From an uncultured Bacteroidota bacterium (GTDB taxonomy: Bacteria; Bacteroidota; Bacteroidia; Chitinophagales; Chitinophagaceae): a stretch of DNA of 58,801 bases. The stretch spans positions 1 through 58,801 of the forward strand of contig CAIVEH010000014.1 of assembly GCA_903904855.1 (NCBI GenBank), given 5' to 3'. Each line of letters opens with the position of its first letter. Position 1 is the first letter of the stretch. The position numbers and the translations under genes were made by a program. Of the stretch, positions 9,401-47,032 are shown one piece after another. The notes under the pieces are model-generated. The model did not search any database. It was not told the DNA's origin and worked only from the letters and a program-made list of their open reading frames with translations.

Positions 9401-11780
9401 ATGGCCTGGTGAGTATTGTATGGTAAGTATATATACCTCCGATTGTAGTAAATCCCTGACTGTTATTAACACAGCTTATCCAGCTACTTTTAGGATTTGT
9501 GGCCCAGCAAGAGGGGAAACCGATGCCTATAACATCTGCACTTCCACCAGAAGTTACTTCTATTTCACCTGTGCATATAGGATTGGAAATCAGGGAAGCT
9601 GCAATAGCAGGGTCTTCATAAGTAACAATCCACTTTGGATCTTTTACAGGTGCGCCACAATCCAAACCAGGAACCACTGCCGAATTTGTAACAGGATCAT
9701 AACCAGTATTAACCTTGATTGAATCCACACAACAGGATGTAGTATCTCTTGGGCCTATTACAGGGCCACAATACGGTATAGTAACGGTGGTTGTTACAAA
9801 ACATCCGGGAGATATCAGATACTTGATAGTAGCAGTGCAAGGGCCGGGGCCGGGATTAGTTGCAGTTACAACACCTGTAGTACTAATCGTACCACATGAT
9901 GGAGTAAGGCTGCTCCACACACCAGCGGGGGTGGCGTCTGCCAGAGTTGTTGTTGTTGAAGGGCAGGCTATTGTTGTTGCCCCGGTTATTGGCGCTGGTA
10001 GAATGTTTGTTACAGATGCGCTTCCCGACATAGTACTGGTGCATCCGGTCGTATTATCAGTTGCTGTAATTGTATAAGTGCAGGGGGAGCATTGGGTACC
10101 AAAATCCAATGCAACTCCTGTTCCACCCCTTGACGTTATCAGTGCAGTACCACAATAAACCTTATAGGTAACTCCTACCTGCGAACCACTCAAACCAATA
10201 TGAGGGCAACCAAAGCTGCTATCGCAATAATTGCCGCCACCGGTTACGTTATACACAACAGGTAATGGCGCCACTGTTACTGTAACGCTGCCATTCATTG
10301 TATCACTACATCCGGTTGTGGCATTGGTTGCTACAACTTTATAAACACAATTAGTGCAGAATAATCCGAAATCAAGTGGTGCACCTGAACCAGATAACGG
10401 AGCGCCAACTATGGTAGTACCGCAGTACAACTGATAATTGATACCTGGAGATGAACAACTTAAACCAACATGAACACCACTGCTTCCGGCGCAGCAAAAT
10501 CCGCCGCCGGTAACATTACACAATGGAGGCAATGCCCCCAAAGTTACTATCGCGCTGCCTGTCATCGTACTGCTGCATCCTGTAACCGTGTTAATGGCTA
10601 CTACAGTGTAAGTACACGCAGTACAAAATGCTCCAAAATCAATAGCAGAGCCAGTTCCTGTAACTGGAGCACCAACTGTGCTAGTGCCACAATATAGCTG
10701 ATAACTTATACCGGGTGTGGAGCAACTCAAACCAACATGCACTCCTGAGCCTCCAGGGCAGCATACACCGCCACCGGTTACTGTACACAATGGTGGTAAT
10801 GGATTTACAGTTACCGTTACAGACTGTGGTAAACCTGGGCAACCATTGGCCGATGGAGTTATTGTTATAGTAGCCACTACCGGAGTTGTTCCAGTATTAA
10901 CTGCTGTAAATGAAGGTATGAGAGATCCTGTACCCGATGCCGCAAGTCCAATAGATGGGTTACTGTTGGTCCAGGAATAGGTTGTTCCTGTTACTGTAGA
11001 CGTAAATATAATCGGAGCAGTGTTTGCGTCACTGCAACGAACCTGTGTGCCGGTTACAGTTAATACCGGTACGGGGTATACAGTTACTGTTGCAGTACTA
11101 TAGCAGCCATCCGGCAATGTATAGGTAATTAATCCTGTGCACGGAAGAGATGTTGAAATGCCGGTACATACTCCCGTACCTGCCACTACAGAAACACAGC
11201 TGCCGCCGCCATTAAATGTACCACCGGGGGTTGCATCTGCCAAGGTTGTGGTTCCCCCTGTGCCGCAGATAGTTCTTGTTCCCGTTATAGCTGCCGGGGC
11301 CGCATTCACGGTTACTGCCTGTGTCACATAACAGCCTGTGTTGCCATAAGTAATTATAGCCACACATCCAGCTGTAATACCGGTTACAACCCCTGCAGGG
11401 CTTACAATGGCACAAGATGATGAAGTAGACCATGTACCTCCCGCCGTTATATCAGAAAGCGCAATGGTAGAACCTACGCACACACTTGTTGGCCCGGAAA
11501 TGGGCGCTGGTGTGGGATAGACTGTTACCGGATAAGTAGTGGAACCACCAATTGAAAAATTGTAAGTGATGGTAACAACTCCTGCCGCAATACCGGTAAT
11601 TATCCCGGTACCACTTCCTATACTAGCCATTGCAGGGTTGCTGCTTACCCAGGAACCTGGTGAGGCATCGGTTAGTGTAATCGTCGATCCTGTACACACT
11701 GCGCTCGGGCCTGTTATCAGTTGTGCAAAAGCGCCAACTGCGCTTAAGTATAACACGAGTAATAAAAATATTTTTTTCAT
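6441..11780 (-). CDS. Giant Cys-rich Ig-like adhesin with T9SS sorting domain
   Basis: This is a 1779-aa protein with a signal peptide (MKKIFLLLVLYLSAVGAFAQ). Successive Big_2/PKD-like modules carry SVCVGSTI, GGTWSSS and I.Y signatures. Four modules of the VTGGG...VGLSCS..GISYQLYCGT type lie in the first two thirds (first around residue 330). A separate ~200-residue region (around 690-890; SCCVDSIKVNTGYDPV ... YNISPNSMGLNVVG) looks like a jelly-roll or carbohydrate-binding fold, but I cannot name it. The last ~75 residues (VFPNPNQGSFTVNL ... APGIYMVSVTTANG) are a T9SS type A sorting domain. Cysteines are unusually frequent (CCPGG, LYCGT, FCTACTYT), unlike the related modules of the plus-strand 1962-aa protein. 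Its promoter carries LytTR-like boxes and its transcript the leader element at 11911-11944. Surface adhesion is inferred. Confidence 0.85.
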   Translation of the reverse strand: MKKIFLLLVLYLSAVGAFAQLITGPSAVCTGSTITLTDASPGSWVSSNPAMASIGSGTGIITGIAAGVVTITYNFSIGGSTTYPVTVYPTPAPISGPTSVCVGSTIALSDITAGGTWSTSSSCAIVSPAGVVTGITAGCVAIITYGNTGCYVTQAVTVNAAPAAITGTRTICGTGGTTTLADATPGGTFNGGGSCVSVVAGTGVCTGISTSLPCTGLITYTLPDGCYSTATVTVYPVPVLTVTGTQVRCSDANTAPIIFTSTVTGTTYSWTNSNPSIGLAASGTGSLIPSFTAVNTGTTPVVATITITPSANGCPGLPQSVTVTVNPLPPLCTVTGGGVCCPGGSGVHVGLSCSTPGISYQLYCGTSTVGAPVTGTGSAIDFGAFCTACTYTVVAINTVTGCSSTMTGSAIVTLGALPPLCNVTGGGFCCAGSSGVHVGLSCSSPGINYQLYCGTTIVGAPLSGSGAPLDFGLFCTNCVYKVVATNATTGCSDTMNGSVTVTVAPLPVVYNVTGGGNYCDSSFGCPHIGLSGSQVGVTYKVYCGTALITSRGGTGVALDFGTQCSPCTYTITATDNTTGCTSTMSGSASVTNILPAPITGATTIACPSTTTTLADATPAGVWSSLTPSCGTISTTGVVTATNPGPGPCTATIKYLISPGCFVTTTVTIPYCGPVIGPRDTTSCCVDSIKVNTGYDPVTNSAVVPGLDCGAPVKDPKWIVTYEDPAIAASLISNPICTGEIEVTSGGSADVIGIGFPSCWATNPKSSWISCVNNSQGFTTIGGIYTYHTILTRPFTMCKADLVNVNLQLAYDNYILSTNIDGTSFYSSGVVNNCSTASFHTTSTTVFLSAGTHYLNVDLYNYSAAYNISPNSMGLNVVGTIKSADDSGSFVNENKATHCCCEGCEITGNTHICAGGTTTLSSCSSCVWSSSNTSVATIGSCTGVVTGISGGTVTITHVSDIGCSTFITVTVDALPTVCTVTGGGPYCIGTTCPHVFLGCSQVGVNYQLSCGSTLVTPLLAGTGSALDFGPECGPCTYTVKATNTIGCTSTMSGSATSTPNSPCPILGTVTSMCVGDNLTMITGSCSPVPSCPWSSSNTSVATVNCSGVVSAVAAGVVIISYTTVAGCVSTYTITVNPSCPISGTLSICAGGSTTLTTCCIGGVWSSSNPACIVVNPATGVCTSLSAPCCSRISYTTMAGCISYATVCSTPVPTVTPNPVSICLGTSVTLNPTPSGGTWTGTPCVSMTPVGSTSSRVITGLFAPCVGSVTYSVGGCSVNVPVTVNAACPITGPLVHPHTVCSGSSIVLATTCVGGTWSSSNPTCVSVNPISGVCTGGTTGTIPCSATITYTSAGGCTSTYTVTNNPVPTISATTLGYCTYMSYINTLTATGGPGTWSTSGLGHATPISTTSPITGVNANSPGTEVFYYTNNTTGCFAQVTVTVYPIPTINVPPNVCVGSSVTCTVNPTGGTFGLSSGCASITSAGVLTGISGLCTEYITYNKNGCITFGVVTVNPLPIASGPSVVCVGSSISETELTGMNCVWSLIPSSPYASLSSFLGTSTNINGLSAGSVTLKAKSLAGCISYKPITVNAPPVPGVILWSPSNIVCVGGTINFANWGGATPGGTWSTSCSLPYATMTPGVGGGTILGDFWGWWPFSHSCILTYTTPNVPGCGTRSVSNTYTVELCKHKGSTAGDETDVLPATELKVFPNPNQGSFTVNLQTDKNESAEVKVTNVIGETIKKFTTVTNKDNMVQIDNAPGIYMVSVTTANGNYVAKVVVE

Positions 11781-11910
11781 CTTTTTGTTTTAATTAGTTA
11801 ATTGAATTGATTTGGTTTTGCGAATTATTATTTACAAATCTTGTAAATAGTTTTTATCAGCCATCTGGCAACCGGATATGATGTTGTATTTCTTTCATGA
11901 TGCTTATTTT

Positions 11911-11944
11911 TGTACCTACTCTTTTCCCTTTTCGGCAACCGGGT
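11911..11944 (-). promoter_or_regulatory. Structured leader element, copy a (giant adhesin)
   Basis: The minus strand reads stem CCC (11943-11941), a 12-nt loop ending CCGAAAA, stem GGG (11928-11926), then AAAAGAGTAGGTA. It lies about 130 nt upstream of ATG 11780 and about 60 nt downstream of the predicted -7 element, so it should be transcribed. It matches four copies at 43401, 45197, 46246 and 46829. Confidence 0.6.
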
Positions 11945-12005
11945 GCATACTCTATTTTGGATTTTCTGCATGCTCCTGTTTGAGATATCAGTTTTGATAC
12001 CGGAT

Positions 12006-41568: not shown

Positions 41569-42561
41569 TTATTCCACAATTGTGATTCGCCATTTCATAT
41601 AGTCGTTGTTAAGCCATTCCCACATTTCCACTTTGGCCCCTTTGCGGCCCCACGAGCCTGCATCTACTGCCAGTACTTTGCCACTGCTCACAACTTCTAT
41701 TTTATACACATCATCGCCAAGGTTGATCAATCGCCATTTCATAAAATCATTATTCAGCCAGTCCCACATTTCCACGAGGCCGCCGTTGTTGTTCGATTGA
41801 CCGCCATCGGCTGCTAGCACCTTATCTCCCGAGACCAGTTTAATTTCATACACATTGCCACCCACATTTATCAGCCTCCATTTCATGAAATTATTGTTCA
41901 GCCAATCCCACGTTTCTACCAGTCCACCTTTGTTGTTAAACTGGCCGCCATCCTCCGCCAGAACCTGGCCTGAATTCATACAAGAAATCCTGCAAATGCG
42001 GCCATCCAGGCGGTGCGTATTTTCCCTGCCATCTCTGTCCCCAAAATTCCGGTGTTCATCTTCCACTGGTATAATTCTCCATTTCTGGTGCATATTATTT
42101 TGATTATCCCAAAGTTGTATTTTAGTGCCGGGTCGGTTAAGTGTGCCCGCATCTGCATCCAGCACACGCCCGCCTTCCACGCACACTATTGAATACGCTC
42201 CTGTTCCATCATCTGTAAGCCTCCATTTCTGATGTTCGTTATTACTGTTATCCCATAGTTGAACCCTTGTGCCGTTTTGGCGCAGGCCACCGGCATCGGC
42301 GTCCAGCACTCGCCCGCTTTGCAAACATTCAATCAGGTAAACTCCCTGGCGCACCTCTGTAAACCTCCATTTCTGATGGTCGTTACGCACATTGTCCCAT
42401 AGTTGCACCCTGGTACCGTTATTACCCAGTGTTCCGGCATCGGCATCCAATACCCTTCCGGATTCTACACATTGTATCTGGCAGATTCTGCCATCGAATT
42501 GCGCTTTTGCATTTATGCCCCAATATGCGAGGGCTATTAATAATATGCTGATCTTTTTCAT
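41569..42561 (-). CDS. Secreted double ricin-type beta-trefoil lectin
   Basis: This is a 330-aa protein with a signal peptide (MKKISILLIALAYWGINAKAQ). Six ~45-residue repeats form two beta-trefoils. Repeats 1-3 (about 22-170) each read GRVLDADAG..........QLWDN..N.HQKWR, with the classic QxW signature. Repeats 4-6 (about 188-330) read G.VLA.DGG..NN.G.VE.WDWLNN.FMKWR, where the Gln of QxW is replaced by Met. The first half looks like a canonical glycan-binding lectin and the second like a diverged one. No T9SS sorting domain is present. It is the last gene of the lectin island and the only one without the leader element directly in front; instead a terminator-like hairpin lies 37 bp upstream. 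Confidence 0.88.
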   Translation of the reverse strand: MKKISILLIALAYWGINAKAQFDGRICQIQCVESGRVLDADAGTLGNNGTRVQLWDNVRNDHQKWRFTEVRQGVYLIECLQSGRVLDADAGGLRQNGTRVQLWDNSNNEHQKWRLTDDGTGAYSIVCVEGGRVLDADAGTLNRPGTKIQLWDNQNNMHQKWRIIPVEDEHRNFGDRDGRENTHRLDGRICRISCMNSGQVLAEDGGQFNNKGGLVETWDWLNNNFMKWRLINVGGNVYEIKLVSGDKVLAADGGQSNNNGGLVEMWDWLNNDFMKWRLINLGDDVYKIEVVSSGKVLAVDAGSWGRKGAKVEMWEWLNNDYMKWRITIVE

Positions 42562-42591: not shown

Positions 42592-42624
42592 AAAAAGTTA
42601 CGGATACCTTCAGAATACCCGTAA
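42592..42624 (-). terminator. Hairpin with T run just upstream of a lectin gene
   Basis: TTACGG pairs with CCGTAA (42619-42624 and 42598-42603) and is followed on the minus strand by CTTTTTT. It is 31 bp upstream of ATG 42561, leaving no room for a promoter between them, so either read-through or attenuation must supply that gene. Confidence 0.6.
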
Positions 42625-42647
42625 CCAATACATATGATAGGGCCAGC

Positions 42648-42858: not shown

Positions 42859-43371
42859 TTACAAAACAGGTATTATACGCCACTTCTGGTTTATATTATT
42901 TAAAGGTTGCCAAAGTTGCAGGTTTCCACCTTCCCTGTTGAAGGTAGGGCCGGTGGCATCCAGCATCCATTCACCAGAAAGGCTTTGAATGGAATATATA
43001 CCCGGAGCTACCTGCCGCACCCTCCATTTCTGGTTATTGCCATTCAGCCAGTCCCAGATCTGCATTCTGGTACCATTGCCATGCATGGATCCGCCATCAT
43101 GCTCCAGCACCTTGTGGTTAAAACTCTCGAATGTGTATACGCCCTGTTCTACTTCTTTGGCTATCCATTCCTGATTGTTCTGGCCGTTCTGGCTAAACAG
43201 GTGTACTTCCGTTCCGTTTGTACCGTAGTTATTTCCCCCGGCCATATCTGCATCTACTACTCTGCCATTTTCGGCATTCTGAATTTTGCACCTGAATATA
43301 TTTCTATGCTGTGCCATGCTGTGGAAACCACAGAGCATAATGGTCATTAATATAATTGAAAGCTTTTTCAT
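42859..43371 (-). CDS. Secreted ricin-type beta-trefoil protein
   Basis: This is a 170-aa protein with a signal peptide (MKKLSIILMTIMLCGFHSMAQ) and one beta-trefoil of three repeats: GRVVDADMAGG...TEVHLFSQNGQNNQEWI, KVLEHDGGSMHGNGTRMQIWDWLNGNNQKWR and EWMLDATGPTFNREGGNLQLWQPLNNINQKWR. All three keep Q.W. A glycan-binding role is expected from the family; the ligand is unknown. It starts 30 bp downstream of leader element b. Confidence 0.88.
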   Translation of the reverse strand: MKKLSIILMTIMLCGFHSMAQHRNIFRCKIQNAENGRVVDADMAGGNNYGTNGTEVHLFSQNGQNNQEWIAKEVEQGVYTFESFNHKVLEHDGGSMHGNGTRMQIWDWLNGNNQKWRVRQVAPGIYSIQSLSGEWMLDATGPTFNREGGNLQLWQPLNNINQKWRIIPVL

Positions 43372-43400: not shown

Positions 43401-43436
43401 TTACCTACTCTGTTCAAGGCTTTTCGGTTACTGCCT
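43401..43436 (-). promoter_or_regulatory. Structured leader element, copy b
   Basis: The minus strand has stem AGGC (43436-43433), a 12-nt loop ending ACCGAAAA, stem GCCT (43420-43417), then TGAACAGAGTAGGTA. It lies 30 nt upstream of ATG 43371. Confidence 0.6.
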
Positions 43437-43477
43437 AATTTCATTGGTTAAAAGTGCTTTTTCAGTTATCCAATTAT

Positions 43478-45010
43478 TTAGCGGCGCGACGCCCAGGTTC
43501 TTATTCCTAAATGATCTGGGTCATCGCCATGATAAACTTCCAGCACACCATTGTCCTGCAGCAGAGCTATAAAATGTTTTCCGCCTGAATTACATTCGCC
43601 TGCCCAGTAAGGACCCTTGTTATCGCCCGGCCCCGTTCCTTTGTAAGCAACAAAATTGCCATCATCCTGCATAATCAGGAAGAAATCACGGCCATCAGAA
43701 TGACTGTTGCTCGACCATACCTGTACTCCTTTAAAGTTGGGGCCTGCGCCATTATAAATTGCAAAATTTCCGTTTGGTTCCATCTGCATGAAGTACTGAC
43801 GATTACCTGAAGTCAGGTAGTCACCGGTTTTCAGATAATCATTGGTTTTCAGAAAAGGATATTCAGTGCCGTTATTAAACATTACCGGCGGAGTTGGTGG
43901 TGTTGGATTTGTTGATTGTATGGGCATACCCATATTCATAGGTGTAGCGCTGGCAATCTTCATTTTCAGTTCTCCCTTTTTGTATTTAAGGCTGTAGGTA
44001 ATATTGGTATAATTTCCGTTTACATCCTTCATTATCGCTGTCCTCTTTGTTATAGAGCCTTTCGATGTATCATCAAAAATCACTTTAAGGCTGTAAGAAC
44101 CTTCGGCCAGGCCATCTGCTTTTACATTAGGCTGTGGCACACTATTACTGAGCTGGCCATTTGCCAGCAACTTGAAATTATCCCCATCCTCAGAGAATAC
44201 AGTAATAACGCCCGAGCCATAGGTAGAGCTGGTATTCATACCTGTGTTGACAGGCTGAGCATTACCATAGTTTGCATCGTTATTCATCCCTGTGTTAACG
44301 GGCTGAGAACCACTATAGTTTGAACCGGCATTCATATTTATGGTGGCGGGCTGAGCGCCACCATCCGTTTTAGCATGGAGTCCCAGGTTTATATCCAGTT
44401 TCAACGTTGACTGCACCTGAACCGGCTGATCACCACCATTATTATAACCGCGGTCATGGTCATCATGGCGTTGTTCGCGGTTGTCGCGGAAGGCATAATA
44501 ATCATCCACATCGCCCACTGGCACCATCTTCCATTGGTGATTTGGCCCTGGGTCAAAAGTCCAGAGCATCAGGGAGCGGTCATCCGTATTGTTGTCTATA
44601 ACCCGGCCTGTGACCGGGCACGTAATAAAATAAACATCGGTTGAAACAAATGTGAGCTTCCAGCACTGATTGGAGTTTCCAGTCTTGTCCGATAGCATCA
44701 AAACAGTACCATCCCGGTACAATGATTCGTTTTCAGCAGTTAATACTTTCCCGTTTGCATGGCATGTTATTAAATATAGGTTCCCGGAAACTTCATTAAA
44801 ATCCCATATCTGGTTAATATCCGATGATTTGGGGTCGCCGGAATGTATCCTGGAGCCATTTGTGAACCGGTTGCTCCCGGCTGCATCATCGGCATCCATA
44901 AACTGATTGGTGTAAAGGCTGTAGATTTTGCACCTGAAATGCCTGTACTGGGCATTAGTATTCATGCCCCAAAGCAGAATTGCTGCTAATAAAATCGTGA
45001 TCTTTTTCAT
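43478..45010 (-). CDS. Secreted protein with ricin-type and bulb-type lectin domains
   Basis: This is a 510-aa protein from ATG 45010 (signal peptide MKKITILLAAILLWGMNTNAQ); an ATG 13 codons upstream is rejected. The N-terminal ~150 residues are a ricin-like trefoil (SDINQIWDF, NSNQCWKL, PNHQWKMV). A low-complexity middle (about 185-270) repeats QPVNTGMN. A beta-rich domain follows (FSEDGDNFKLLANGQL ... EGSYSLKVIFDDTSKGSI). The C-terminal ~110 residues are a bulb-type (GNA-like) mannose lectin fold with three repeats, MEPNGNFAIY, MQDDGNFVAY and LQDNGVLEVY; the consensus is QxDxNxVxY, so several binding positions are altered. Two lectin folds in one secreted protein suggest glycan cross-linking, which is inference. 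Leader element c precedes it. Confidence 0.85.
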   Translation of the reverse strand: MKKITILLAAILLWGMNTNAQYRHFRCKIYSLYTNQFMDADDAAGSNRFTNGSRIHSGDPKSSDINQIWDFNEVSGNLYLITCHANGKVLTAENESLYRDGTVLMLSDKTGNSNQCWKLTFVSTDVYFITCPVTGRVIDNNTDDRSLMLWTFDPGPNHQWKMVPVGDVDDYYAFRDNREQRHDDHDRGYNNGGDQPVQVQSTLKLDINLGLHAKTDGGAQPATINMNAGSNYSGSQPVNTGMNNDANYGNAQPVNTGMNTSSTYGSGVITVFSEDGDNFKLLANGQLSNSVPQPNVKADGLAEGSYSLKVIFDDTSKGSITKRTAIMKDVNGNYTNITYSLKYKKGELKMKIASATPMNMGMPIQSTNPTPPTPPVMFNNGTEYPFLKTNDYLKTGDYLTSGNRQYFMQMEPNGNFAIYNGAGPNFKGVQVWSSNSHSDGRDFFLIMQDDGNFVAYKGTGPGDNKGPYWAGECNSGGKHFIALLQDNGVLEVYHGDDPDHLGIRTWASRR

Positions 45011-45196
45011 TGTTTTGTTTTTTAGGGCTTCTGCGAGTAAGTTGTTCAATAGTGGCGAAATTATTTTTCTTTTTTTTAAGCTGCCAAAGCTGCGAATAGC
45101 AAACCTATTTAAGGATTTGGCAGCGAAGAAAAAATGGAAAAGAACGAGTCAATATGAACAAGTTATTTGCAGTAGCCCTTAGTTAAGCTGAAGGTT

Positions 45197-45233
45197 GTAC
45201 CTACTCTTTTCAAGGTTTTTCGGTTTCCACCTT
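45197..45233 (-). promoter_or_regulatory. Structured leader element, copy c
   Basis: The minus strand has stem AAGGT (45233-45229), a 12-nt loop ending ACCGAAAA, stem ACCTT (45216-45212), then GAAAAGAGTAGGTAC. It lies about 187 nt upstream of ATG 45010 and follows the gene ending at 45304. Confidence 0.6.
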
Positions 45234-45303
45234 TTTATTGATTTAATTATATTTCATTGTTGAATTCTGCAATGGTTTACTGTATTTTAATTTTTGAAAC
45301 CGC

Positions 45304-46212
45304 TTATTCCAGAATCAGTTTTTTGGATTCCATGCCTATTTCATCTGCGATTGTAACGATGTAATTCCCTTTAAATAATCCGATAAATTCAATCGGTATA
45401 TTATTGGCGCCATATACTACCGGTGCAGTGATATTTTTAACGGCATGGCCAGCAATATCTGTAACATAGATATTTACGTTTCCATTGAACAGGCTGTAGT
45501 AGCTGATGGTCGTATTATCCTTAGCCGGATTAGGATAGATTGTTGTTTCCTGATGTTCAGTTACCTGTTCAACGCCTGTTGCCACAGTGCCTGAAAAAGC
45601 AAGGTTATCAAGATATAAATAGCTACCAGCTACAGGAGTTGTTGCGCTCGACGAAGCCAGGATCATAGCCGAATCCGGGTATTTGCCGCTCCTGTAGGTA
45701 AGTGGTATCGTGAACGTGGCCCAGGTAGTTTGCGTGGTAGGCAGGCCAGGTACAGCATAGGTGGTAAATGCTACTGTATCCTTCCTGTGCAGGGTTGTAT
45801 TCCATTTAGATAATAATACCACAATCTGGGCATGGTCGGCCCCTGATGCCTGGTATTGCCAGCTGCCGGTAAGGTTCTGAGGACGGGTAGTGCAGGCAAA
45901 TCCGCCGCTTACACCATATGTAGTACCTGATAATGATATTGTACCTGTAACTGCCACGCCTGGTATTACAGCGGTAAGTACTGTTTTGGAGGTCAGTTTA
46001 AGGTAGAAGGAGCCGGCACCTGTAGCGCCGCCAGTGCCTTTTTCACAATTGTAAACGCTGGCCATGCTGGTCAGTGAGTTGGTATTGCCCCAGCTATCGG
46101 GAGTGTCGTAACCGGTATGTGCGGTCCATGTTTCGAAGCTTGCATTGGGAATCTGCGCAATGGCTGCGCATGAGATCATTAACGATAAAAAAAGAATAGA
46201 ATAGCTCTTCAT
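45304..46212 (-). CDS. Secreted PCMD-like protein with T9SS sorting domain
   Basis: This is a 302-aa protein with a signal peptide (MKSYSILFLSLMISCAAIAQ). The start of the mature chain, IPNASFETWTAHTGYDTPDSWGNTNSL, is typical of the Bacteroidota PCMD (putative carbohydrate metabolism) or jelly-roll family, and YLYLDNLAFSGT closes that domain. The C-terminal ~80 residues (TIYPNPAKDNTTISY ... GLFKGNYIVTIADEIGMESKKLILE) are a T9SS type A sorting domain. It is probably a surface-exposed glycan-binding protein; enzyme activity is not evident. Leader element d lies 34 bp upstream. Confidence 0.82.
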   Translation of the reverse strand: MKSYSILFLSLMISCAAIAQIPNASFETWTAHTGYDTPDSWGNTNSLTSMASVYNCEKGTGGATGAGSFYLKLTSKTVLTAVIPGVAVTGTISLSGTTYGVSGGFACTTRPQNLTGSWQYQASGADHAQIVVLLSKWNTTLHRKDTVAFTTYAVPGLPTTQTTWATFTIPLTYRSGKYPDSAMILASSSATTPVAGSYLYLDNLAFSGTVATGVEQVTEHQETTIYPNPAKDNTTISYYSLFNGNVNIYVTDIAGHAVKNITAPVVYGANNIPIEFIGLFKGNYIVTIADEIGMESKKLILE

Positions 46213-46245
46213 AAAATTAAATTTTGAATGGTGAATTGTTTATTT

Positions 46246-46286
46246 CTCCTACTCGTTTCACGGGTTTTCAGATTTCCCCCTCCCGC
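46246..46286 (-). promoter_or_regulatory. Structured leader element, copy d
   Basis: The minus strand has stem GCGGG (46286-46282), a loop of about 17 nt ending CTGAAAA, stem CCCGT (46264-46260), then GAAACGAGTAGGAG. Similarity to copy e extends upstream to a shared CCCCGCACA. Confidence 0.6.
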
Positions 46287-46344
46287 TTTGATCAATTGTG
46301 CGGGGCAATTCAATGTTATTTGTTGTTTTAAACAACCTGAAGCT

Positions 46345-46406
46345 ATCTGATGCTCCCAGCCGGATCAGCATTTTACGGGTAGTCCGGCTGGAAACAGGCA
46401 TCAGAT
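46345..46406 (-). terminator. Double-stem structure after the 127-aa gene
   Basis: An outer stem ATCTGATGC/GCATCAGAT (46345-46353 and 46398-46406) encloses a perfect 9-bp inner stem CCAGCCGGA/TCCGGCTGG (46356-46364 and 46383-46391). It begins 15 bp past the stop at 46421. There is no long T run, so it may be an RNA-processing or stability element instead of a terminator. Confidence 0.6.
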
Positions 46407-46420
46407 GTTACTTTTAAAAC

Positions 46421-46804
46421 TTACCACGTAAACACCACAATCAGGTTATTCCAGTTGTGGGCCGGGTTCTGGTCTTGCGAAAAAACGGTAATGCAATTGG
46501 GTGACTCAACAATTTTCACATAAGAAGGATACCAGGTTGCCTGATTACTGCCATGGTCGCTGTTGATAATTACGTTGACCGGGTATTGCTGAAATGTGCC
46601 ATAAGAGGCCGGGGTATTGATAACCGGACGTGGCAGGGTAATAACCTGTGTACCCTGACCAATTCCACCTTCATTGGTGAGGTTGTTTGGGTCTGATAAA
46701 GCAACCTGTTCGTGCCAACCGGCGAATCCAACTACGGCAGTAATACTAACCTGGGTATTCAATGGCAGATAAGCAGTAACCGCATTGTTGATTACGTAAG
46801 ACAT
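46421..46804 (-). CDS. Small protein of unknown function at head of lectin island
   Basis: This is a 127-aa protein without signal peptide or membrane helix (MSYVINNAVTAYLPLNTQVSITAVVGFAGWHEQVALSD...). It looks all-beta, with regularly spaced Trp (GWHEQ, ATWYPSYVKI, HNWNNLIVVFTW) and Asn, in the manner of small lectins or pore-forming folds, but I cannot assign a family. The lack of an export signal contrasts with every neighbour. Leader element e lies 25 bp upstream of the start and a double-stem structure follows the stop. Confidence 0.7.
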   Translation of the reverse strand: MSYVINNAVTAYLPLNTQVSITAVVGFAGWHEQVALSDPNNLTNEGGIGQGTQVITLPRPVINTPASYGTFQQYPVNVIINSDHGSNQATWYPSYVKIVESPNCITVFSQDQNPAHNWNNLIVVFTW

Positions 46805-46828
46805 AAAAATTGAATTATTTGAATTAAG

Positions 46829-46868
46829 TTCCTACTCTTTTCACGGGTTTTCAGATTCCCCCTCCCGC
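46829..46868 (-). promoter_or_regulatory. Structured leader element, copy e
   Basis: The minus strand has stem GCGGG (46868-46864), a 16-nt loop ending CTGAAAA, stem CCCGT (46847-46843), then GAAAAGAGTAGGAA, 25 nt upstream of ATG 46804. Confidence 0.6.
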
Positions 46869-47032
46869 TTTGATTGCCTGTGCGGGGCAGGCCCTGTTTT
46901 TCTGTGGTTCCGGATCCACCATCAATGTAGCTACCAGTTGATGATGCAAATGTCTAAAGAGAACTGAAGCCCTGTAAGAGCAGAAATAACCGAATTTAAA
47001 AACAGAGCTATTTATCCGTTTTTAAAAAACAT

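What the first reader, a model, noticed from the sequence alone, without database searches (positions are those of the whole stretch)
43401..46868. Candidate leader-RNA family with covarying stem in front of four consecutive lectin-island genes
Seen: four elements (43401-43436, 45197-45233, 46246-46286, 46829-46868), one directly upstream of each of the genes starting at 43371, 45010, 46212 and 46804, all on the minus strand. Each has a short stem, a loop ending C(C/T)GAAAA and a tail matching GAAAAGAGTAGG with at most one change. The stem differs between copies but stays paired: AGGC/GCCT, AAGGT/ACCTT and GCGGG/CCCGT (two copies). The loop is exactly 12 nt in the two copies with ACCGAAAA. Known: paired changes of this kind indicate RNA structure. 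Inference: an undescribed cis-acting leader (riboswitch, translational control or protein-binding element) that marks extracellular proteins. Its presence before each gene in a same-strand run suggests it acts gene by gene, not only at an operon promoter.
Basis: partly seen in the sequence, partly recalled or inferred. Interest (0 to 1): 0.88.

Follow-up and report, generated by a model that had tools for sequence, protein, structure and literature searches.

The report
Start-codon-proximal pseudoknot leader RNA (DUF805b)
The four small RNA elements are real but belong to an RNA family already catalogued as DUF805b; closer study shows a covarying pseudoknot sitting about 20 bases before start codons in Bacteroidota and in viral contigs, which points to a role in starting translation that can now be tested.

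Summary
The four elements exist and are not chance, but the family is not undescribed: Rfam RF02914 (DUF805b) matches three above its cut-off and the fourth just below; my own model finds 37 matches in the genome. What this work adds: (1) besides stem P1, a three-base loop-tail helix P2 makes an H-type pseudoknot (97.6% paired, strong covariation). The Rfam consensus line lacks it; whether the original paper shows it could not be checked. (2) The near-invariant core GAAAA/GAGUA fits a sarcin-ricin (loop E) module beside P2 (inference). (3) The pseudoknot ends 14-30 nt before an AUG in 137 of 155 cases, while promoter boxes are scattered. (4) Copies lie close behind upstream ORFs and in phages, often before ParB-like genes. 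(5) In the window the one displaced leader of the four has a 160-nt dispersed repeat in its linker; without it the spacing is 28 nt. Best reading: a cis element acting gene by gene on translation initiation; its partner (ribosome, protein or ligand) and sign are unknown. It is not specific to extracellular proteins.

The parts
43402..43437 (-). DUF805b leader 1: P1 43433-43436/43417-43420; P2 43426-43428/43403-43405 (ACC/GGU); core GAAAA 43421-43425 and GAGUA 43406-43410; 31 nt before ATG 43371
   Evidence: Rfam RF02914, 43.2 bits; pseudoknot; spacing
45198..45233 (-). DUF805b leader 2: P1 45229-45232/45213-45216; P2 45222-45224/45199-45201 (ACC/GGU); 188 nt before ATG 45010 because of the repeat at 45022-45181
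   Evidence: Rfam RF02914, 48.5 bits
45022..45181 (.). 160-nt dispersed, partly palindromic repeat (outer arms 45024-45048 and 45155-45179) between leader 2 and its gene; without it the spacing would be 28 nt
   Evidence: 29 matches in own genome, itself included
46246..46281 (-). DUF805b-like leader 3: P1 46277-46280/46261-46264 (3 of 4 pairs), P2 46270-46272/46247-46249 (UCU/GGA); 34 nt before ATG 46212
   Evidence: Rfam 31.9 bits, below the 35.6 cut-off; own model 37.9 bits; P1 and P2 present
46282..46309 (-). Second, upstream pseudoknot of leader 3: hairpin AUUG(46306-46309)/CAAU(46295-46298), loop CCCCGC pairing with GCGGG 46282-46286
46829..46864 (-). DUF805b leader 4: P1 46860-46863/46844-46847 (3 of 4 pairs), P2 46853-46855/46830-46832 (UCU/GGA); 25 nt before ATG 46804
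   Evidence: Rfam RF02914, 41.4 bits
46864..46891 (-). Second, upstream pseudoknot of leader 4: hairpin CCUG(46888-46891)/CAGG(46877-46880), loop CCCCGC pairing with GCGGG 46864-46868
11913..11977 (-). Tandem pair: upstream copy (P2 GCA/UGC) and downstream copy (P2 GCC/GGU) with no nucleotide between; 15 nt before an ATG of a 13-aa ORF and 133 nt before ATG 11780
   Evidence: Rfam 34.4 bits for the downstream copy, below the cut-off
46424..46804 (-). 127-aa protein, no Pfam family; target of leader 4
45307..46212 (-). Protein with type IX secretion sorting domain (Por_Secre_tail); target of leader 3
43481..45010 (-). Ricin-type lectin-like protein; target of leader 2
42862..43371 (-). Ricin-type lectin; target of leader 1
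42596..42626 (-). Terminator-like hairpin (13 pairs, then a T run) after the run of four genes
   Evidence: 13 terminator-like sites in the region, 5.8 expected

Best explanation
The elements are DUF805b RNAs (Rfam RF02914). Shown by sequence: each is a compact H-type pseudoknot of about 35 nt. P1 (3-4 bp) and P2 (3 bp between loop and tail) both covary, while GAAAA (between P2 5' and P1 3') and GAGUA (just before P2 3') hardly change. Inferred: GAAA/GAGUA form a sarcin-ricin (loop E) module stacked on P2, giving one quasi-continuous helix. Shown: the pseudoknot is placed relative to the AUG (14-30 nt, rarely closer), just upstream of an A-rich initiation region, without a fixed distance to promoter boxes, and some copies lie a few nt behind an upstream ORF. 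Inferred: it acts on translation initiation of the gene right behind it, by presenting a folded RNA at the mRNA exit side of the 30S subunit. I lean to a positive or gated role through a trans partner (30S platform, bS1 or an RNA-binding protein) rather than sequestration of the start site. Rough likelihoods: family identity 0.97, pseudoknot 0.95, action at translation 0.7, mainly enhancing 0.4.
For: Family. P2: 97.6% of cells paired against 76.7 (sd 1.3) in shuffles; covariation 0.568 against 0.169 (sd 0.016), 0 of 500; slid partners at most 46.4% and 0.132. With all three P1 pairs 167 of 176 matches have 3 P2 pairs; with two P1 pairs 16 of 32; with fewer 11 of 49. Pattern set where P1 was not imposed: 112 of 118 form it, shuffles mean 19.7, max 29. 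11 tandem pairs found, all with a 0-nt gap and with different P2 5' strands. Spacing: 137 of 155 at 14-30 nt, 2 of 155 below 14; 91 of 111 in the pattern-selected genome set; 86 of 103 in viral contigs. TAnnTTTG boxes scattered over the 200 nt scanned, none within 17 nt of P1. Targets have more A at -13, -12, -11, -6 and -3 (144 targets, 141 control ORFs) and a more open start region; A at -3, -6, -12 and -13 and low pairing go with strong initiation in F. johnsoniae (PMC6847099, passages). Position behind ORFs: 19 of 165 begin within 35 nt of an upstream same-strand ORF stop; in a Flavobacterium phage the Rfam match begins 4 nt after the gp40 stop and ends 20 nt before gp41.
Against: No experiment: transcription, folding and effect on expression are untested, and the sign of the effect is undetermined. 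A ligand-sensing translational riboswitch would show the same spacing. P2 is incomplete in some elements: with a wider descriptor 21 of 204 own-and-relative elements lack one or more P2 pairs (17 lack one), and the middle P2 pair hardly varies. The sarcin-ricin module is inferred from near-invariant letters, so it has little covariation; the variant test was small (GAACA/UAGUA 6 of 57 pattern matches pass P1 and spacing, GAACA/GAGUA 0 of 32, GAAAA/UAGUA 2 of 33, GAACA/CAGUA 4 of 58, those 4 looking like coding chance). GAAAA/GAGTA were part of my descriptor and patterns; among 29 Rfam hits outside it 27 keep both. Control ORF starts are predicted and may be wrong, which could inflate the contrast. 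The upstream ORFs are open frames, not verified genes. Many viral contigs are close relatives, so their counts are not independent.
Confidence: 0.6

Rival explanations
1. A small-molecule or second-messenger riboswitch: the compact pseudoknot is a ligand aptamer (like preQ1-I in size and fold), and ligand binding toggles initiation of many unrelated genes.
For: Size (about 35 nt), H-type pseudoknot with covarying stems and near-invariant unpaired core; many copies per genome, which recalls c-di-GMP riboswitches (from memory); tandem copies.
Against: No metabolic coherence seen among targets; phage copies before ParB-like genes; the start region is predicted more open than in controls, so no built-in closing helix was seen (a model without pseudoknots); no riboswitch family matched in the window.
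Confidence: 0.2
2. A binding site for a dedicated RNA-binding protein that represses or activates a secretion, competition or stress regulon post-transcriptionally.
For: Near-invariant core with freely varying stems; targets include secreted enzymes, lectins and RiPP-type precursors; position next to the initiation region.
Against: No candidate protein was sought or identified; phages with other kinds of genes use it too. It overlaps the best explanation and differs only in naming the partner.
Confidence: 0.25
3. An mRNA 5'-end stabiliser or processing site.
For: Structured RNA in 5' regions.
Against: Promoter boxes lie at scattered distances, so it is not fixed to the 5' end; some copies begin a few nt after upstream stop codons; spacing to the AUG is the tight variable.
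Confidence: 0.1
4. A DNA-level element such as a promoter or operator.
For: Repeated near genes of one functional flavour.
Against: Compensatory changes in two interleaved helices, fixed distance and orientation to the AUG, copies close behind upstream ORFs.
Confidence: 0.02

Closest known systems
Rfam RF02914 DUF805b RNA
   Same: Three of four copies score above its cut-off over all 35 positions; hairpin P1, GAAAA loop end and GAGUAGG tail are its consensus.
   Different: Its printed consensus structure has only P1. The P2 pseudoknot, AUG spacing, tandem form, upstream second pseudoknot and phage copies were found here; whether the Rfam seed or its original paper notes any of them could not be checked.
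Rfam RF03081 DUF805 RNA (same clan)
   Same: Its 3' half is the same module; the copy in this genome (C173, 79.6 bits) lies 20 nt before the ATG of a DUF805 protein.
   Different: It has an upstream GUGG/CCAC hairpin; the window showed no match to it at the gathering score, and two window copies carry a different upstream hairpin (CCUG/CAGG or AUUG/CAAU) whose loop pairs with GCGGG next to P1.
preQ1-I riboswitch (recalled, no call)
   Same: Very small H-type pseudoknot with an A-rich third loop, near the start codon.
   Different: No Rfam match to it in the window; here many copies before unrelated genes and a 5-nt GAAAA between P2 5' and P1 3'.
Sarcin-ricin / loop E module (PMC8450098, passages)
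   Same: The 5x4 internal-loop size fits; that GAA/AGUA is its sequence signature is recalled.
   Different: Here it would lie inside a pseudoknot and be closed by a normal helix on the P2 side only; not tested structurally.
SD-based autoregulation of rpsU in F. johnsoniae (PMC9976891, passages)
   Same: A leader element tuning initiation in bacteria whose anti-SD is sequestered.
   Different: That is a strong SD for bS21-free ribosomes; this is a folded pseudoknot with a variable P2 tail.

Membership tests
Rfam RF02914 DUF805b | Covariance-model score at or above the gathering score 35.6 | tested here: met
   43402-43437, 45198-45233 and 46829-46864: 43.2, 48.5, 41.4 bits
Rfam RF02914 DUF805b | Same score test for the fourth copy, 46246-46281 | tested here: not met
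   31.9 bits, E 4e-6; it shares P1, P2 and the core, so it is called DUF805b-like
Rfam RF02914 DUF805b | Upstream of protein genes in Bacteroidota (the family's taxon is recalled) | tested here: met
   172 of 176 elements have an ORF of 40+ codons starting within 300 nt; 52 of 198 sampled genomes of the phylum, own included, match at E <= 1e-6, 0 of 14 control genomes; 77 of 80 listed named records are Bacteroidota, 3 unnamed
Rfam RF03081 DUF805 | Match to the two-hairpin model | tested here: not met
   no match in the window at the gathering score; one search shows only the best member of a clan, so a weak RF03081 match there could be hidden; one match elsewhere in the genome
H-type pseudoknot | Loop-tail helix with compensatory changes | tested here: met
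Sarcin-ricin (loop E) module | Sequence pattern GAA / AGUA next to a helix, 5x4 size | tested here: met
   letters nearly invariant, partly by selection; size from PMC8450098
Sarcin-ricin (loop E) module | Concerted change at its variable non-canonical pair | tested here: inconclusive
   6 of 57, 0 of 32, 2 of 33 and 4 of 58 in four variant scans; strand order of the pairs listed in the paper not established
Sarcin-ricin (loop E) module | Non-canonical base pairs and bulged-G triple | not testable with these tools
   needs probing or a structure
Metabolite riboswitch | Ligand binding and switching | not testable with these tools
   no experiment; no riboswitch family matched in the window

The most novel reading that the evidence does not exclude
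DUF805b is a structured translation-initiation enhancer that stands in for the Shine-Dalgarno sequence in a phylum that hardly uses one: a pseudoknot with a sarcin-ricin module docks at the mRNA exit side of the 30S subunit (or on bS1) and recruits ribosomes gene by gene; phages of Bacteroidota carry it for their own genes, and some hosts elaborate it into tandem or double-pseudoknot forms.
Probability: 0.22. Interest if true: 0.87.

Novelty: new member of a known kind. Interest (0 to 1): 0.58.

Why it matters
DUF805b is filed in Rfam only as a cis-regulatory RNA, and my text searches found no held paper that names it, apart from one listing of its accession. A covarying pseudoknot held 14-30 nt from AUGs, in bacteria whose ribosomes largely ignore Shine-Dalgarno sequences, and shared with phages, turns it into a concrete question about how Bacteroidota select and tune translation starts. 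If it enhances initiation it would also be a compact expression part for these bacteria.

Tried and rejected
Undescribed family: rejected by Rfam. Marker of extracellular proteins only: rejected as a general rule. DNA operator or promoter: rejected by the covariation and the AUG-fixed position. Coding leader: rejected because the spacer between P1 and GAGTA varies by single nucleotides. Fixed distance to promoter: not found (42 TAnnTTTG boxes in 162 upstream regions against 21 and 18 in two control patterns, scattered). Upstream second pseudoknot as a general feature: rejected (12 of 116 outside G000 and G003 against a shuffled mean of 10.1; G003 2 of 17 against 1.15); it stands out only in the own genome (13 of 34 against a mean of 1.9, maximum 7; about 3 of the 13 look like AT-rich chance). 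RNAalifold finds only P1, as it cannot show pseudoknots. The genome-wide GAAAA-N5-20-GAGTA count is not above its backward control (354 against 417), so the letters alone are not diagnostic. The original description of the motif (Weinberg et al. 2017, recalled) is not held.

Rows and samples: alignment A1 holds the first 150 of 162 distinct elements, including at least three chance rows (window:43252-43285 inside a lectin gene, L121:1056, L141:373), which also went into model R1 and explain its match at 43252. One search looked at 32 Rfam hits that I picked, mostly those my descriptor had missed; 29 were outside it. Searches used 99 of 103 phage ORFs; four with an ATG 89 or more nt away were dropped (one at 91 was kept). 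Family tables show only the first 25 families. In one search ten upstream tandem copies were set aside (165 to 155).


Full report
1. Observation. The four elements are present on the minus strand and exceed chance: 9 GAAAA-N5-14-GAGTA matches in the window, 1.07 expected, 0 of 100 shuffles reaching 9. For the 46246 and 46829 copies the stem was mis-assigned: in the geometry common to all copies P1 is GGG/CCC, and the GCGGG before it can pair with the loop of an upstream hairpin.

2. Identity. Rfam calls three of them DUF805b (RF02914: 48.5, 43.2 and 41.4 bits; cut-off 35.6) and gives the fourth 31.9 bits. The own genome has 42 matches at E <= 1, 16 above the cut-off; at that loose threshold all 14 control genomes also gave matches, none above the cut-off. 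A model built from my alignment finds 37 at E <= 0.1, one of them the RF03081 copy. The sister family RF03081 (DUF805) has one match above its cut-off in the 19 stretches scanned, 20 nt before the ATG of a DUF805 protein.

3. Distribution. RF02914 matches 15 of 20 genomes (own plus 19 relatives) at E <= 0.001, the own genome having most (33), and 52 of 198 sampled genomes of the phylum, own included, at E <= 1e-6 with stricter filters; 0 of 14 control genomes match at these thresholds. In Flavobacterium phage vB_FspS_lillamy9-1 an Rfam match of 52.1 bits begins 4 nt after the stop of gp40 and ends 20 nt before the ParB-like gp41. A variant with GAACA and TAGTA precedes gp81 of phage elemoE; it was not matched by Rfam at the gathering score.

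4. Structure. A descriptor using GAAAA, GAGTA and three P1 pairs, but not P2, gave 176 distinct elements in the 204 sequences then held (window and 203 loci); 167 of 176 form all three P2 pairs, against 16 of 32 matches with two P1 pairs and 11 of 49 with fewer. On a MAFFT alignment of 150 of the 162 distinct elements, P1+P2 score 92.8% paired and covariation 0.758 (shuffles 61.5% and 0.172); P2 alone 97.6% and 0.568 (76.7% and 0.169), 0 of 500 shuffles. P2 types include GCC/GGC, UCC/GGA, ACC/GGU, GCU/AGC, CCC/GGG, GCA/UGC and UCU/AGA; the middle pair is nearly always C-G. L1 is mostly 4 nt, sometimes 5 or 3 (165, 14 and 4 of 183, where 21 of 204 elements form fewer than 3 P2 pairs). In a set that fixed P2 but not P1, 112 of 118 form P1 (shuffles mean 19.7). 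All 11 tandem pairs found have a 0-nt gap and differ in their P2 5' strand, as expected if the pseudoknots must not cross-pair; in one (L125) the first copy forms only two P2 pairs and shares the 3' strand letters.

5. Core. GAAAA and GAGTA are nearly invariant: of 176 hits of a relaxed scan 158 have no mismatch, 2 have one, 16 have two (reversed control 8, all with two). This is biased by how the loci were chosen; among 29 Rfam hits outside my descriptor 27 keep both. GAAA opposite GAGUA beside P2 has the size (5x4) of a sarcin-ricin internal loop (PMC8450098, passages) and would make P2, module and P1 one stacked column; the reading of AGUA/GAA as that motif is from memory. A test of variants at its variable pair was weakly favourable but small.

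6. Placement. Counting only the downstream copy of tandems, P2 ends 14-30 nt before an ATG of a 40+ codon ORF in 137 of 155; 2 of 155 are closer. Of the elements outside 14-34 nt, several have an ATG 15-29 nt away that opens a shorter or in-frame ORF. The pattern-selected named set gives 91 of 111, viral contigs 86 of 103; the named set may overlap the first, and the viral set holds close relatives. As a caution, 15 of 49 core matches without P1 also have an ATG at 14-34 nt; some of these are probably true elements with L1 of 3 or 5. Promoter -7 boxes are scattered. The linker is A-rich and G-poor; A at -13, -12, -11, -6 and -3 is commoner than in control ORFs (0.70/0.44, 0.74/0.55, 0.74/0.55, 0.49/0.34, 0.63/0.44), and the start region is predicted more open (-15 to 0: 0.62/0.56; 0 to +10: 0.58/0.48; no difference at -30 to -15 and +10 to +30). 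In F. johnsoniae A at -3, -6, -12 and -13 goes with strong initiation, pairing is low from -20 to +20, and bS1 is suggested to reach -12 to -15 (PMC6847099, passages). So the pseudoknot stops about where the initiation region starts.

7. The window. Leader 2 is 188 nt from its ATG. Between them lies a 160-nt partly palindromic sequence (outer arms 25 nt, 84% complementary) with 29 matches in the genome, itself included, most covering its central part. Without it the spacing is 28 nt. No TAnnTTTG box lies on the minus strand between 45107 and 50864, and a terminator-like hairpin follows the run, so the four genes may share one transcript; this is not shown.

8. Targets. Own genome, 31 proteins: T9SS sorting domain 3, ricin-type lectin 2, class 3 lipase 2, carbonic anhydrase 1, class I lanthipeptide leader 3. 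Relatives, 126 proteins: T9SS 4, subtilase 3, sulfatase 3, astacin 3, rhodopsin 2, lanthipeptide, bacteriocin-like, TIGR04149 and CCPGW families 2 each. Viral contigs, 99 proteins: the commonest ParB-like family 29; most Pfam matches there are single. No test of enrichment against whole genomes was made, apart from the signal-peptide heuristic.

9. Mechanism. The tight variable is distance to the AUG, not to the promoter; some copies lie directly behind upstream ORFs; the start region is open. This favours action on translation initiation from outside the initiation region, so a partner is needed. Whether that is the ribosome, a protein or a ligand, and whether it raises or lowers initiation, is open. 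Shared use by hosts and phages makes a generic positive role attractive, but this is inference.

10. Literature. No held paper contains 'DUF805b', 'DUF805 RNA', 'DUF805 motif' or RF03081; RF02914 appears in one machine-learning paper (PMC7682815, search listing only). A transcriptome paper on F. psychrophilum does not mention DUF805 in its main text (PMC9723704, passages). The original description is not held, so I cannot say that the pseudoknot is unpublished.

Noticed in passing
window 45022-45181: 160-nt palindromic dispersed repeat, 29 matches in the genome with itself (mostly its central 95 nt, about 74-81% identical), between a leader and its gene; it carries a TAGGTTTG box (45100-45107).
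   Followed up: partly
window 11857-11898 (-): A 13-codon ORF starts 15 nt after the tandem leader, 133 nt upstream of the large T9SS protein gene at 11780; possibly the true start served by the element, or a leader peptide.
   Followed up: no
L032 (own genome C119:49000-62500): Five leaders, each before a short precursor-like ORF (MKKK...GKL...), some matching class I lanthipeptide leaders, in one cluster.
   Followed up: partly
L246 (Cytophagales MAG): Seven DUF805b matches within 8 kb on one strand; the gene behind the one traced match starts with a GG-leader-like peptide.
   Followed up: no
window 41569-42561 (-): Ricin-lectin gene next in the run, behind a terminator-like hairpin (42596-42626), without a leader element.
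   Followed up: no
L355, L361, L363, L384, L414, L434, L442 (viral contigs): Viral contigs with two or three leader elements each in the stretch held.
   Followed up: partly
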